The notes below the pieces were generated by a model. It had not been told where the DNA came from and ran no database searches. It was given only the letters and a program-made list of their open reading frames with translations. Below are positions 4,335-8,170 of a DNA stretch of 14,870 nucleotides, in pieces. The translations under genes and the position numbers were made by a program. How positions within the stretch are numbered: position 1 is the first letter of the stretch; every line of letters starts with the position of its first letter. The DNA is from DHVE2 group archaeon (GTDB lineage: Archaea; Thermoplasmatota; Thermoplasmata; Thermoplasmatales; Aciduliprofundaceae), in contig WAOY01000180.1 in NCBI GenBank assembly GCA_015520985.1, positions 1-14,870 of the forward strand, read 5' to 3'.

Positions 4335-4356
4335 GGAAATGCAATCATGCGGCCAG

Positions 4357-4668
4357 ATGATAGAGGAGAGCATCAGGAAAATCAGGGAAGCCGAGGAGAA
4401 GGCCAAGCGCGACGTGGAAGAGGCGGAGAGGAACAGCAAGATCATGGTAGAGAGTGCAAAGAAGGAAATCGCCAGGGATATTGAGGAGAAGAGAAAGGCC
4501 CTTCTCCGGGACATAGAGGCAAGGAAGAAAAAAGCGGAGGAAGAGGCCACCAGGGAAGCGGAGAAGATACGCAAGTACTACAGCGACAGGGCGGCTAAGA
4601 TCAGGGCCATAGGCGAGGATCGCGTGGAGACCGTCGCCAGGGAGATAATCGGGGAAATCCTTGGGTGA
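4357..4668 (+). CDS. atpH: A-type ATP synthase subunit H (peripheral stalk)
   Basis: Subunit H (AhaH) pairs with subunit E to form the peripheral stalk that keeps A3B3 from turning with the rotor. The 103-aa protein is almost entirely charged coiled coil, with repeated Glu/Lys/Arg and Ala heptads (REAEEKAKRDVEEAE and onward), and ends in a short hydrophobic IIGEILG. This length and composition are usual for the family. ATG 4357 is chosen over ATG 4339 because it sits 27 nt from the TATA centre and begins the expected MIEESIRKIREAEEKA. It is the first gene of the operon, and its TGA overlaps a GTG of the next gene. Confidence 0.85.
   Translation: MIEESIRKIREAEEKAKRDVEEAERNSKIMVESAKKEIARDIEEKRKALLRDIEARKKKAEEEATREAEKIRKYYSDRAAKIRAIGEDRVETVAREIIGEILG
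4664..4668 (+). promoter_or_regulatory. Shine-Dalgarno deciding the atpI start
   Basis: GGTGA contains both the GTG at 4665 and the atpH stop. Five bases later comes ATG 4674. Read as a ribosome-binding site it makes ATG 4674 the start, not the GTG. Confidence 0.5.
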
Positions 4669-4673
4669 AGGGG

Positions 4674-6824
4674 ATGCTCTTCCCGGCCAAGATGGCTGAA
4701 GTCGAAGTTCTCGTACACGATTCTGTGAAGTACGACGTCCTGCGCGTGATGCAGCGCAAGGGGTTCATGCACATCGTTCACCATTCCCTTGACTCCGTGG
4801 AAGACGCGAAGCCCTCGGATGATGTCAGCAAAATTGTGGATCTCAGTTTCAGGATATCCAAGCTGATGGGCATCCTTAACATAGCGAAGAGGAAGGGGAG
4901 CGGCGGCATAAAGGAGCTTTTGAACCCTCCCGCACCAGAGAAGTTCCCGGCCAGGTCCAGGGGCAGGGAGGAGATAATGCAGGATGCCCGGGATACCCTG
5001 GCGAACTTGGAGGATTTCATCCTGGGTCTGGGGCAGGAGTGGGATAGGATAAACGATTCCATAGAGAGGAAGAGGCGGCAGATCCAGGACCTGAAGCTCC
5101 TCTCCGGTCTGGATTTCAACCTGGAGTACCTGGGCGAGGGGATGTACGCCGTTGTTTCCGCGGGCATGGCCAAGGACATATCCGGCCTGATGAAGCTCCG
5201 GTCAGAGGGCAAGCTGGCGCTTTGGTACAAGGTCATCGGAAAGAAGAAGAACATATCCTACGTGGTAGTGGTTGCCTACCACCTCAAGGACAGGAAGGAG
5301 GTGGAATCGGCGCTCCGTTTCGCCAGTTTCGCCGAATTCGATTTGTCGGGGCTGCGGGGCAAGCCCGGCGAAGCGGTAGCTGCCCTGAAAAAGGAGATAA
5401 AGGACCTGGAGAACTCCCGGGAGGAACTTAGGGAGAGGATAGCCAGGGTGAGGGAGGAGCACTACGGGCACCTCGCCGTGCTGTACGATGACCTTGAGAC
5501 GGAGAAGGTTAAGGAGGACTTCCACAACCGCTTTGGAAAAACGGAGTTCACCACGGTGATAAGGGGCTACATCCCCAAGAAGCGCCTGGAGGAGGCGAAG
5601 GAGTCCATAAACGAGGCGGCCAGGGGTCTAGCGGTTATAGAGCACAGGGACGCCGAGGGCGAGGACACCCCGGTCATGTTCAACAACCCGTCCTTCCTGA
5701 AACCCTTCCAGGCCTTCGTTGAGATGTACTCTGTGCCCAAGTACGGGTACATTGAGCCAACCGTGATAATCGCGCCCCTCTTCATAGCGTACTTCGGCTT
5801 GACCCTGGGAGACGCGGGGTATGGTCTCATAATCACCATCCTTGGGTATCTCCTCTGGTTCAAGGTGGGGAGGTACGACTGGACCAACCGCACCCTGGGG
5901 AAGATACTCTTCGCCTCGGGAATATCCGCGATAATCTTCGGGATAATCCAGGGCGGTATATTCGGGCCCCTGGACTCTACGAATCCCCTGTCGCAGTACA
6001 TACAATATGAGCCCCTCATAGACCCAATGAGGGACGCGGTTTACATACTCACCATAGCCCTAGTCATAGGCATCGCGCAGATATCCCTCGGCCTGATACT
6101 AGGTGCATATCATCATCTGAAGCACAGGAACTACGGGGATTTCCTCACCTCTGAGCTCTCCTGGTTCCTCATCCTGCCCTTCGGAGGGCTTCTCATAGGC
6201 CTTATGTTCAACTGGTGGACCCTGGACACGAACCTATATTACCTAAGCTGGGCGCTGCTTCTGGTGGGTCTGGCCCTCCTCACCGGCGTCCCGGCGCGCC
6301 TCGTGGACAGGGAGTCGGCGATAAACGGCATGGCCTTCTTCGACATCACCGGGATGGTCGGGGACTGGCTGTCGTACTCCCGCCTTCTCGCCCTGGACCT
6401 GGGCACATCGGGTATCGCCCTCACCATAAACCTCTTCGCCGGGATAATGTCGGGGATGATCGTGGGCGCGGGGAGCCTGGTGTGCTGTGCTCCTCTAATC
6501 ATTGTCGGTATCGCCATGTTCGCGTGGGTGGCCAGGAAGAGGGACCCGAAGAAGACCGGCATAGCCGCATTCCTGCTGGTACTCGGGGCTATTGGTGTTA
6601 TTAACCTGCAGGCGGCCCTCTGGCTCTTCATCGGAATTTACCTGGTGGCCGCGCATATTGGCAATGCGCTGCTGCAGTCCCTTGGCTCGCTTGTGCATTC
6701 CCTCAGGTTGCAGTACGTTGAATTCTTCTCGAAATTCTACGAAGGTGATGGTGTGAAGTTCGAGCCGTTTAGGGAGTTTAGGAAGAACTCAAAGATTGTG
6801 GATGTCGGAGGTGCTGAGAGATGA
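4674..6824 (+). CDS. atpI: A-type ATP synthase subunit I (a subunit, ion channel stator)
   Basis: Subunit I (AhaI) provides the two half-channels through which ions reach the rotor ring. The 716-aa protein has a cytoplasmic N-terminal half (about residues 1-340) with coiled-coil segments and a C-terminal membrane half with about eight helices. The signature FGLTLGDAGYGL is at about 374-385. Arg570 in WLSYSRLLALDLG aligns with the essential Arg of the yeast a subunit (R735). Arg678 in VHSLRLQYVEFFSKFYEG matches the second conserved Arg (R799). The end, KFYEGDGVKFEPF, is typical. It is slightly longer than many archaeal homologues. The stop overlaps the start of atpK as ATGA. Confidence 0.95.
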   Translation: MLFPAKMAEVEVLVHDSVKYDVLRVMQRKGFMHIVHHSLDSVEDAKPSDDVSKIVDLSFRISKLMGILNIAKRKGSGGIKELLNPPAPEKFPARSRGREEIMQDARDTLANLEDFILGLGQEWDRINDSIERKRRQIQDLKLLSGLDFNLEYLGEGMYAVVSAGMAKDISGLMKLRSEGKLALWYKVIGKKKNISYVVVVAYHLKDRKEVESALRFASFAEFDLSGLRGKPGEAVAALKKEIKDLENSREELRERIARVREEHYGHLAVLYDDLETEKVKEDFHNRFGKTEFTTVIRGYIPKKRLEEAKESINEAARGLAVIEHRDAEGEDTPVMFNNPSFLKPFQAFVEMYSVPKYGYIEPTVIIAPLFIAYFGLTLGDAGYGLIITILGYLLWFKVGRYDWTNRTLGKILFASGISAIIFGIIQGGIFGPLDSTNPLSQYIQYEPLIDPMRDAVYILTIALVIGIAQISLGLILGAYHHLKHRNYGDFLTSELSWFLILPFGGLLIGLMFNWWTLDTNLYYLSWALLLVGLALLTGVPARLVDRESAINGMAFFDITGMVGDWLSYSRLLALDLGTSGIALTINLFAGIMSGMIVGAGSLVCCAPLIIVGIAMFAWVARKRDPKKTGIAAFLLVLGAIGVINLQAALWLFIGIYLVAAHIGNALLQSLGSLVHSLRLQYVEFFSKFYEGDGVKFEPFREFRKNSKIVDVGGAER
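6807..6813 (+). promoter_or_regulatory. Strong Shine-Dalgarno for atpK
   Basis: GGAGGTG lies 7 nt before ATG 6821, inside the end of atpI. It is among the best ribosome-binding sites in the operon, as expected for a ring subunit needed in many copies. It also fixes the start at the signal peptide, so the N-terminal domain is truly part of the protein. Confidence 0.6.
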
Positions 6825-8170
6825 AAAGATTGTTGATGGCACTGCTTCTCATAGCGCTGCTAAGCGTGGTGAGCGGCTCCGTGCTCGGGGCGGTTAATGT
6901 GAAGGAGGAGAAGTGGAACAGCCATGAGTACACCACAACTTCGCTGGATAAGGCGAATCTGGTGGTTGGAACGGATTACATATTCGAGTACGTGGCCGAT
7001 GATGGGAGCACACCCTCAAATGTGACCTGGATCATCGTGAGCGTTGAGGACGGCACGCAGACCGTTTACATGGGCAACCCCGTCAGGATATCCTTCCCCA
7101 CATCCGGAAATTACAACGTGACCGTTAAGATGGGCAGCACAGTGGTCTATTCTTCCGGGACAATCAAGGTGCACGAGGGTCCCCTGGGCATGGCCCTCGC
7201 GTTGATAGGTGCGGGAATAGCCGTTGGCGCATCCGGAATGGGTGCCGCCATTGGTGTGGGTATCGCCGGGGCCAGCGGTGCGGCCGCCGTGGCCGAGGAC
7301 AAGAACAGATTCCGCAACGCCTTCATATTCCAGGCCTTCCCCCAGACCCAGGGTATCTACGGCCTGCTCGTTGGTATCTTGATTCTCATGTCCACTGGTG
7401 CCCTCACCGGTGGGGGCCTTCTGCCCACCGCGGACATCCCCGTGGGTGCCGGTCTTATGGCCCTGGGCGCCGGGCTCTCCGTGGGCATCGCCGGCCTGAG
7501 CGCCATAGGTCAGGGCATCGTGGCAGGTACTGGCATCGGGGGCACAAGGAAGCAGGGCACCATGGGTAAGGCCGTGGTTTTCACAGTTCTCCCGGAAACT
7601 CAGGCCATATACGGTCTCCTGGTTGCCATCCTGCTCTGGCTTGGAATGAACGCCATGATAAGTGGGAGCACCACCCCGTCCTTCGCCCTGGCCATGGGTA
7701 TCGCAGCCGTTGGTGTGGGCCTGGGCATGGGTCTGAGCGGAATAACCGCCATAGGTCAGGGCATCGCCGCGTCTTCGGGCTCAGCCGCGACGGCGCAGAA
7801 TCCCAAGGCATTTGGAAGCTCTATACTATTCGCCGTGCTGCCCGAGACGCAGTCCATATACGCCCTGCTTGCCGCGATCCTGGTGATAATGAACATGGGC
7901 CTTATGTCGGGCATTGCCCCTATCAAATCGCCCTTCCAGGCCATGCTCATAGGTATAGGTGTCCTGGGTATTGGCTTCTCCGTGGGTCTCGCCGGGATAA
8001 GCGGTATCGGTCAGGGTATCACCGCGGGATCCGGTGTGGCGGCGTACGTGAAGGACCCGAGCACCAGGACCAAGAGCATAATGCTGTCCGTGATGAGCGA
8101 GACATACGCCATCTTCGGTCTGCTGATGGCGATCCTGATAATGATGGCCCTCCACATCATAGGAGGATGA
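6821..8170 (+). CDS. atpK: A-type ATP synthase subunit K: signal peptide, external PKD-like domain and four ring hairpins
   Basis: Subunit K (AhaK, proteolipid) forms the rotating membrane ring. Most are one or two hairpins of 80-160 aa; this one is 449 aa. Residues 1-24 are a signal peptide (MKRLLMALLL..., possible cleavage near VLGA). Residues 25-118 are a beta-rich domain with PKD-like FPTSGNYNVTV and two Asn-Val-Thr sequons (Asn67, Asn99). Four hairpins follow at about 122-195, 207-280, 287-362 and 373-446, spaced 82-86 aa apart. The ion carboxylates are Glu259, Glu342 and Glu428, and the partner Gln in the first helices is Gln231, Gln313 and Gln398 (GQG). Hairpin 1 has Gln175 and Val146 at these places. 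PETQ in hairpins 2 and 3 and SETY in hairpin 4 resemble Na+-type V/A-ATPase sites. Family membership is secure; ion type and stoichiometry are inferred. Confidence 0.93.
   Translation: MKRLLMALLLIALLSVVSGSVLGAVNVKEEKWNSHEYTTTSLDKANLVVGTDYIFEYVADDGSTPSNVTWIIVSVEDGTQTVYMGNPVRISFPTSGNYNVTVKMGSTVVYSSGTIKVHEGPLGMALALIGAGIAVGASGMGAAIGVGIAGASGAAAVAEDKNRFRNAFIFQAFPQTQGIYGLLVGILILMSTGALTGGGLLPTADIPVGAGLMALGAGLSVGIAGLSAIGQGIVAGTGIGGTRKQGTMGKAVVFTVLPETQAIYGLLVAILLWLGMNAMISGSTTPSFALAMGIAAVGVGLGMGLSGITAIGQGIAASSGSAATAQNPKAFGSSILFAVLPETQSIYALLAAILVIMNMGLMSGIAPIKSPFQAMLIGIGVLGIGFSVGLAGISGIGQGITAGSGVAAYVKDPSTRTKSIMLSVMSETYAIFGLLMAILIMMALHIIGG
6893..7174 (+). other. Extracytoplasmic PKD-like domain within AtpK
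   Basis: About 94 residues lie between the signal peptide and the first ring helix. They contain alternating hydrophobic/polar strands (DYIFEYVADD, NVTWIIVSVE, PVRISFPTSGNYNVTVKM, TIKVHEG), two N-glycosylation sequons and no cysteines. Because the hairpin ends of K subunits face away from the cytoplasm, the domain would sit on the outer mouth of the ring. The fold call is by pattern only. Confidence 0.5.
7184..8167 (+). repeat. Four tandem proteolipid hairpin repeats in atpK
   Basis: The ring part consists of four diverged copies, about 82-86 codons each. Copies 2 and 3 still share an identical 20-base stretch (7501-7520 and 7747-7766) around the GQG codons, which fits in-frame duplication of an ancestral hairpin. 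Copies 1 and 4 differ in the ion-site residues. Confidence 0.8.
8162..8166 (+). promoter_or_regulatory. Shine-Dalgarno for atpE
   Basis: GGAGG sits within the last codons of atpK, 8 nt before ATG 8175. Confidence 0.5.

What the first reader, a model, noticed from the sequence alone, without database searches (positions are those of the whole stretch)
7184..8167. AtpK ring subunit with three ion sites per four hairpins and matching loss of paired residues
Seen: hairpins 2, 3 and 4 have GQG (Gln231, 313, 398) and Glu (259, 342, 428), while hairpin 1 has Val146 and Gln175. In Enterococcus NtpK (established) a Na+ site is built from Glu139 and Gln110 of one hairpin plus Thr64 and Gln65 of the preceding hairpin. 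By that logic hairpin 1 still needs its Thr-Gln (Thr176, Gln177) to serve hairpin 2, and has it. Hairpin 4 would serve the dead hairpin 1 of the next subunit, and its Gln is replaced by Tyr430. The loss is therefore coordinated across the gap. This predicts Na+-type sites and a ring with fewer ions per turn than hairpins (nine per twelve hairpins if three subunits form a ring), which changes the ion/ATP ratio. It looks like an NtpK-type pair expanded by two central hairpins.
Basis: partly seen in the sequence, partly recalled or inferred. Interest (0 to 1): 0.85.

Follow-up and report, generated by a model that had tools for sequence, protein, structure and literature searches.

The report
Archaeal rotor with one vacant site
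The ATP-synthase rotor protein of an archaeon is a chain of four repeated units of which only three look able to carry an ion, and relatives show the same "one vacant seam per chain" design at other lengths, so gene fusion may set how many ions the cell pays per ATP.

Summary
The K gene (6821-8170) encodes 449 residues: probable signal peptide, Ig/PKD-like outer domain, four hairpins. Hairpins 2-4 carry Gln+Glu; hairpin 1 has Val146/Gln175. Two residue numbers were one too high (Glu427, Tyr429). All 27 four-hairpin sequences listed in the first search, window included, share the pattern. By alignment the two end hairpins equal those of Enterococcus NtpK, with two complete hairpins between.

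It is one step of a ladder. In 70 complete genes from the species collection, 67 have a dead first hairpin and a last hairpin without the donor Gln; 65 of these have n-1 sites. Counts divide 12 in 65 of 70 (3, 4, 6, 12; else 13 or 5). Two 12-hairpin genes are 6+6 with an internal vacant seam. Sites are Na+-type by sequence; 11 of 12 single-hairpin K genes read from sister families have ETL, as in H+-driven Thermus.

Ring size (probably 3 chains, 12 hairpins, 9 ions, 3.0 ions/ATP) and ion type remain inferred. New variant of a known kind.

The parts
6821..8170 (+). atpK: K (c) subunit of an A-type ATP synthase, 449 aa, probable signal peptide + outer domain + 4 hairpins
6821..6889 (+). hydrophobic N-terminus, probable signal peptide (residues 1-23; cleavage not tested)
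   Evidence: inference
6890..7174 (+). outer domain, residues 24-118: beta sandwich, Ig/filamin/PKD-like
   Evidence: AF2 model, filamin/PKD folds, PKD at 15.8 bits, below cut-off
7181..7396 (+). hairpin 1 (residues 121-192): vacant; V146 (7256-7258), Q175 (7343-7345); donor T176-Q177 (7346-7351)
7439..7648 (+). hairpin 2 (207-276): Q231 (7511-7513), E259 (7595-7597), donor T260-Q261
7685..7897 (+). hairpin 3 (289-359): Q313 (7757-7759), E342 (7844-7846), donor T343-Q344
7940..8152 (+). hairpin 4 (374-444): Q398 (8012-8014), E427 (8099-8101), T428, Y429 (8105-8107) in place of the donor Gln
   Evidence: sequence
4339..4668 (+). coiled small gene, by place probably AtpH (no Pfam match)
   Evidence: inference from order
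4665..6824 (+). AtpI (stator a subunit)
   Evidence: PF01496
8175..8762 (+). AtpE (peripheral stalk)
   Evidence: PF01991
8728..9843 (+). AtpC (foot that sits on the ring); listed frame, true start may be later
   Evidence: PF01992
9840..10160 (+). AtpF
   Evidence: PF01990
10157..11914 (+). AtpA (catalytic)
   Evidence: PF00006
11915..13291 (+). AtpB
   Evidence: PF00006

Best explanation
AtpK is a capped tandem-repeat rotor subunit. Ion sites lie between neighbouring hairpins: hairpin i gives Thr-Gln, hairpin i+1 gives Gln and Glu. Hairpin 1 is an N-cap (gives, cannot receive), hairpin 4 a C-cap (receives, cannot give), hairpins 2 and 3 do both. One chain of four therefore holds three sites, and the interface to the next chain is a vacant seam. 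The sites are of the Na+ type of NtpK. Most likely three chains close a 12-hairpin ring with nine ions per turn (3.0 ions per ATP), each seam being a double-length step. Shown: residues, their conservation, the register with NtpK, the pairing of losses between neighbours, and the same one-vacant-seam rule in chains of 3, 6, 12 and 13 hairpins. Inferred: ring of 12, Na+ as the ion, ion/ATP ratio. My component odds: 3 sites of 4 hairpins 0.95; Na+-type chemistry 0.7; three chains per ring 0.65.
Against: No ring was modelled: the tools give no coordinates and no multimer. NtpK itself forms a ring of 10 two-hairpin chains (PMC12018189, passages), so 20 hairpins (five chains, 15 ions) is possible by ancestry. 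Counts that do not divide 12 exist: 5 (11 proteins), 7 (3), 8 (2), 9 (1) of 225 capped complete proteins, and 13 (11); some may be collapsed repeats (P0172 has two identical hairpins), but not all need be. Pairing has exceptions: Methanopyri lose the donor Gln (ETR, 23 pairs) with an intact partner site, and 33 pairs break the acceptor with the donor kept. Pairs share descent, so p-values overstate. The searches lean towards capped chains: one of the two DNA patterns was the dead-hairpin motif PQTQ itself, and the protein queries carried the caps. Two four-hairpin chains have a live first hairpin (P0198, P0210). The cultured relative Aciduliprofundum is acidophilic (recalled), which fits H+ better than Na+.
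Confidence: 0.6

Rival explanations
1. Same capped four-hairpin chain, but the ring keeps the NtpK size: five chains, 20 hairpins, 15 ions (5.0 per ATP), or four chains, 16 hairpins, 12 ions.
For: The caps match NtpK residue by residue; NtpK rings have 10 two-hairpin chains. For n = 4, ions per ATP simply equals the number of chains, so any whole number is consistent with the sequence.
Against: Relatives with the same caps have 3, 6, 12 and 13 hairpins per chain, none of which divides 20 or 16, and the window's family holds both 4 and 6, which share 12 as the smallest common ring size.
Confidence: 0.25
2. The sites carry H+ (or either ion), and the Gln/Thr ligands are an inherited shell without Na+ use in an acidophile.
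For: Aciduliprofundum is an acidophile (recalled). [quoted passage not shown]
Against: Donor Gln is invariant in all 27 four-hairpin proteins aligned, while it is Leu (11) or Asn (1) in the 12 single-hairpin sister-family K genes read and Leu in Thermus. Where a donor Gln is lost the partner is lost too in 22 of 45 pairs.
Confidence: 0.3
3. Another c-like protein completes the ring and supplies or blocks the missing site, as c'' does in eukaryotic V-ATPases.
For: An orphan two-hairpin ATP-synt_C-like gene (one Glu in most copies) occurs in G001, G002, G004, G006 (two adjacent copies), G007 and G008, weakly G003. Some more distant genomes with multi-hairpin K also hold separate one- or two-hairpin K genes (G140, G144, G145).
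Against: No match in the window's held genome nor in G011, G013, G015 and G017; in G007 its neighbours, judged by eye from the translations, are not ATP-synthase genes; it scores below Pfam's cut-off. The window genome is incomplete.
Confidence: 0.04
4. Ordinary relic: hairpin 1 lost its site once in an ancestor and nothing about ratio or fixed ring size follows.
For: One ancestral loss could explain all capped chains; hairpin counts are correlated by descent.
Against: Caps are kept through changes of length (3, 4, 6, 12, 13), chains fused head to tail keep both caps at the internal joint, and separate partner losses arose at other internal joints (ETP|L, ETH|L, ETH|Q/QTQ).
Confidence: 0.2

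Closest known systems
NtpK, c subunit of the Na+ V-ATPase of Enterococcus hirae (2bl2)
   Same: Dead hairpin 1 (V34/G63, donor T64-Q65), live hairpin 2 (Q110/E139) ending in ETY; identical register
   Different: Two hairpins and one site per chain; ring of 10 chains; 156 residues, no outer domain
Three-hairpin K of Methanocaldococcus jannaschii and other methanogens
   Same: Triplicated hairpins in one chain (PMC2359735 section 8, read); that its first hairpin is dead is my recall, and is what the nine three-hairpin genes show (M. jannaschii not among them)
   Different: Three hairpins, two sites
Thirteen-hairpin K of Methanopyrus kandleri
   Same: Many hairpins in one chain
   Different: All 13 keep a full site (PMC2359735); likewise P0130 (Methanopyrus sp. 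KOL6) and L102 (Methanopyri); no caps
Six-hairpin K of Aciduliprofundum relatives and Methanomicrobiales
   Same: Same caps; in the window's family hairpins 4 and 5 are closest to types 2 and 3
   Different: Five sites of six; in four of five six-hairpin chains of the family the hairpin 3/4 site keeps Glu but has Pro and Leu for the two Gln
Eukaryotic V-ATPase c, c' and c''
   Same: Loss of complementary interfaces at chain joints (Finnigan 2012, as told in PMC7982386, passage); one site per two hairpins (recalled)
   Different: H+; ring of 10 mixed subunits
Single-hairpin K of Thermus (c12 ring)
   Same: A/V-type rotor of 12 hairpins
   Different: One site per hairpin, ETL, H+

Membership tests
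A/V-type ATP synthase subunit K/c (PF00137) | ATP-synt_C hairpins above cut-off | tested here: met
   200.2 bits against 24, four stretches
A/V-type ATP synthase subunit K/c (PF00137) | Lies in an A-type operon with I, E, C, F, A, B | tested here: met
   subunit D is elsewhere, G000:C15
A/V-type ATP synthase subunit K/c (PF00137) | Carboxylate in the second helix of hairpins | tested here: met
   in hairpins 2, 3, 4, not in 1
NtpK-type (two hairpins, one Na+ site) | Ligand set Thr64, Gln65 (hairpin 1) with Gln110, Glu139 (hairpin 2) | tested here: met
   T176, Q177, Q231, E259, and the same residues at joints 2/3 and 3/4
NtpK-type (two hairpins, one Na+ site) | Exactly two hairpins per chain | tested here: not met
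   four
NtpK-type (two hairpins, one Na+ site) | Binds and carries Na+ | not testable with these tools
   needs DCCD/Na+ assay
NtpK-type (two hairpins, one Na+ site) | Ring of ten chains | not testable with these tools
   no multimer modelling
All-live multi-hairpin rotor (Methanopyrus type) | Full site in every hairpin | tested here: not met
   hairpin 1 lacks Gln and Glu
PKD domain (PF00801) | Score above Pfam cut-off for the outer domain | tested here: not met
   15.8 bits against 23.5; fold is Ig-like with filamin and PKD matches; some relatives carry precomputed PF00801/PF18911

The most novel reading that the evidence does not exclude
Archaea tune the ion cost of ATP by gene fusion on a fixed frame of 12 hairpins. 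Each chain end costs one ion site, so 12 = 4x3, 3x4, 2x6 or 1x12 gives 8, 9, 10 or 11 ions per turn (2.67, 3.0, 3.33, 3.67 ions per ATP). In the window's family the gear differs between 4 and 6 hairpins by a hairpin pair, and relatives have swapped the whole I-K-E-C block while keeping their own A subunit, so the gear box moves as a cassette matched to the foot (C) that sits on the ring.
Probability: 0.4. Interest if true: 0.85.

Novelty: new variant of a known kind. Interest (0 to 1): 0.7.

Why it matters
The number of ions per ATP sets which gradients can support ATP synthesis, and how it changes in evolution is an open question. Here nature offers a series of rotors built of homologous hairpins with 2 of 3, 3 of 4, 5 of 6 and 11 of 12 sites filled, two of them within one family, and joint-specific paired losses that show how a site is shared between neighbours. 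That makes ring size, the effect of vacant seams on stepping, and the ion/ATP ratio directly testable; cultured organisms exist (Aciduliprofundum, recalled; Methanomicrobiales isolates such as Methanocalculus taiwanensis with six hairpins and Methanospirillum stamsii with three).

Tried and rejected
A second K gene as the real ring: only the operon K in the held genome; orphan c-like genes of sister genomes gave no match in G000, and the one whose surroundings I read (G007) is not in an ATP-synthase operon. Against me: three of six more distant genomes with multi-hairpin K also hold separate one- or two-hairpin K genes (G140, G144, G145), so more than one rotor gene per genome does occur in the wider group. 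Assembly collapse for the window: rejected, hairpins differ. Relatives in viral contigs: none confirmed. Ring closure from the 12-hairpin model P0142 (pLDDT 89.7, pTM 0.90): the matches were single c chains and unrelated helical proteins, and without coordinates I cannot say whether the chain closes, so it is not used as evidence. A phylum-wide count (90 genomes, the window's own among them, the others asked for at 90% completeness or more) showed mostly one- and two-hairpin K; outside the family no open frame with more than two hairpins was listed, so long capped chains are patchy in this phylum. For print: none of the listings, nor the passages I opened, described a 3-of-4, 5-of-6 or 12-divisor rule; subscription papers that I recall on the subject (Mueller 2004, Mayer 2012, Lolkema and Boekema 2003) were not read (Mayer 2012 is not held), so priority is not claimed.

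Weak points of my counts: one search kept the best 80 of 204 relatives and one of its two DNA patterns was the dead-hairpin motif, so the share of capped chains is not an unbiased rate (hairpin counts are less affected). Protein hits are the best-scoring ones for queries of 4, 12 and 3 hairpins, and lists 1 and 3 were cut at 120 (of 255 and 984); related sequences count many times. In one search some frames running off contig ends were counted as complete (L092, L120, L122, L126); one search is the cleaner count and sets aside 10 incomplete frames. Four-hairpin proteins: 78 of 82 fit the pattern, two have Gln in the last hairpin (P0178 and the cut L120), two have a live first hairpin. Ten proteins (P0156-P0165) were left out of the pair counts. 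In the subunit trees, rows covering under 60% were dropped (G014 in A and B).

Full report
What is there. The window is an A-type ATP synthase operon: a small coiled gene (probably H), I, K, E, C, F, A, B; D lies on another contig of the same genome. Named records nearest to the K gene are DHVE2-group and Aciduliprofundum metagenome genomes, so the window belongs to that group of archaea. K is 449 residues: a hydrophobic start, a beta-sandwich domain (residues about 24-118) and four hairpins at 121-192, 207-276, 289-359 and 374-444.

The observation. Hairpin 1 has V146 and Q175; hairpins 2, 3 and 4 have Q231/E259, Q313/E342 and Q398/E427; donors are T176-Q177, T260-Q261 and T343-Q344, and hairpin 4 has T428-Y429. 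Of 120 listed homologues (the window included; 255 passed the threshold), 27 have four hairpins and all 27 show this pattern; the site residues other than 429 are invariant among them.

Is the loss coordinated? I extracted neighbouring hairpins from 283 proteins and from the genes of 79 loci not already among them, leaving out ten proteins of other motif classes (P0156-P0165). Of 1321 distinct internal neighbour pairs, 45 have lost the donor Gln; in 22 of these the next hairpin has lost its Gln or Glu, against 33 of 1276 with the donor kept. A positive link exists only at offset +1: same hairpin 0 of 272, previous hairpin 4 of 307, second-next 0 of 34, second-previous 74 of 308 (against 231 of 724). 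Separate kinds of paired loss occur: ETF|V/QTQ at internal seams (4 pairs), ETH|Q/QTQ (6), ETP|L (7) and ETH|L (5); the last two keep the Glu. Against it: ETR|Q/ETQ in Methanopyri (23 pairs) and acceptor losses with an intact donor (33 pairs). Pairs are related by descent, so the odds ratio of 36 is a description, not a probability. At the chain ends, 268 of 296 chains of three or more hairpins counted as complete have both a non-Gln donor and a dead acceptor; 11 have neither, 11 only the donor change, 6 only the dead acceptor (seam list).

A ladder. In the collection with one genome per species, 421 stretches matched a pattern, 204 encoded relatives and the best 80 were kept, giving 79 loci. 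One of the two patterns was the dead-hairpin motif, which favours capped chains. 70 genes are complete: 3 hairpins (9), 4 (23), 5 (1, L083, with a further hairpin in another frame behind it), 6 (30), 12 (3), 13 (4). 67 of 70 have a dead first hairpin and a non-Gln last donor; one carboxylate is missing in 65 of these and two in the 6+6 genes L072 and L078. The other three are Methanopyri-type genes (L102, L119, L133) with 13 of 13; the fourth 13-hairpin gene (L075) has 12 of 13. Among the 283 proteins, 225 capped complete chains have 3 (42), 4 (61), 5 (11), 6 (80), 7 (3), 8 (2), 9 (1), 12 (14), 13 (11) hairpins; on contigs of 20 kb or more 85 of 97 divide 12, seven have 13 and five neither. 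Several 12- and 13-hairpin chains have further dead hairpins inside (9 to 11 live). Single-chain capped rotors thus pile up at 12 and 13, while 10 and 11 are missing among capped chains although the second search covered those lengths. A 6+3+3 chain (P0134) also sums to 12, but its likely kin P0002 (9) and P0022, P0028, P0031 (7) do not. I read this as a ring of 12 hairpins. Ancestry from NtpK would allow 20, but 3, 6 and 12 do not divide 20. Some odd counts may be collapsed repeats: P0172 (5) has two identical hairpins, and that hairpin matches its closest six-hairpin relative equally well in three places.

Four and six in one family. Among 18 genomes of the family, K has four hairpins in G000-G004, G007, G014, G015, G017 and six in G009-G013; G008 and G016 hold fragments, and none was found in G005 and G006 (sequences). 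The six-hairpin chain reads 1-2-3-2'-3'-4: its hairpins 4 and 5 are closest to the window's 2 and 3 (61% and 63% in L048, 54-59% in the others). So the lengths differ by a pair, and both divide 12. In four of five six-hairpin chains of the family (L042, L043, L044, L049; not L048) the 3/2' joint carries ETP|L, i.e. both Gln lost and Glu kept: perhaps a proton-type or weak site (inference).

The cassette. Subunit A places four-hairpin G015 and G017 with six-hairpin G011 (100/97) and rejects a clade of the family's five four-hairpin rows that have it (p-AU 8e-12). I, E and C instead reject the genus clade g5 (p 0.004, 1.5e-6 and 3e-32). In C and E the six-hairpin rows (with G016, whose K is a fragment) form a starred clade (100/99) that leaves these two out; the four-hairpin clade itself is weakly supported (C 46/23, E 56/92, I 87/89), and B resolves little. 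K and A lie on the same locus in both genomes (L046, L047). So the I-K-E-C block moved between lineages, or the contigs of two metagenome genomes are chimeric in the same way. In Thermus the foot subunit touches the c12 ring directly (PMC5758568, passages), a reason why C should follow K.

Ion. The three donors that are used have Thr-Gln. In the same order, the 12 single-hairpin K genes I read, from other families, have ETL (11) or ETN (1), and one two-hairpin gene has MTQ and ELF (13 of the loci returned); Thermus, which is H+-driven, has ETL. This points to Na+-type sites here. It stays an inference, because the cultured relative is an acidophile (recalled) and ligands can persist in H+ enzymes (PMC2359735, passages).

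Known and new. Multi-hairpin K, the three-hairpin methanogen form and the 13-hairpin Methanopyrus form are in print, as is loss of ligands after duplication (PMC2359735, section 8 read). I saw no account of 3-of-4, 5-of-6 or 11-of-12 chains, of cap-to-cap fusions, or of hairpin counts dividing 12 in the listings and passages; the library lacks most subscription papers. Verdict: a real, conserved new variant of a known kind, with ring size and ion as the tests that matter.

Noticed in passing
window 6890-7174: K carries a probably secreted Ig/PKD-like domain in front of the first membrane helix, with invariant residues across the 27 four-hairpin relatives; a rotor with outside domains.
   Followed up: partly
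L037:6164-6796; also G001, G002, G004, G006 (two adjacent copies), G008, weakly G003: Orphan two-hairpin ATP-synt_C-like gene with one Glu in most copies, below Pfam's cut-off; in G007 its neighbours, judged by eye, are not ATP-synthase genes; no match in the window's held genome nor in G011, G013, G015 and G017.
   Followed up: partly
P0157-P0160: K chains of 15 hairpins, all with Glu and I/EAL motifs (H+-like); P0157 and P0160 are named Promethearchaeota. Possibly single-chain rotors of 15.
   Followed up: no
P0162-P0165: Candidatus Gracilibacteria / Vampirococcus c subunits of 12 and 10 fused hairpins, all with Glu: multi-hairpin rotor chains in bacteria.
   Followed up: no
L042, L043, L044, L049 (six-hairpin K): At the joint of hairpins 3 and 4 both Gln ligands are replaced (ETP and Leu) while Glu stays: possibly one chemically different site per five.
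   Followed up: partly
G000:C15:4087-4656: Subunit D is not in the operon but on another contig; in the single-contig genomes G011 and G013 it also lies far from K.
   Followed up: no
G140, G144, G145: Genomes of Methanocalculus taiwanensis, Methanospirillum stamsii and a Hydrothermarchaeota MAG hold one- or two-hairpin K genes besides the multi-hairpin one: two kinds of rotor in one genome.
   Followed up: no
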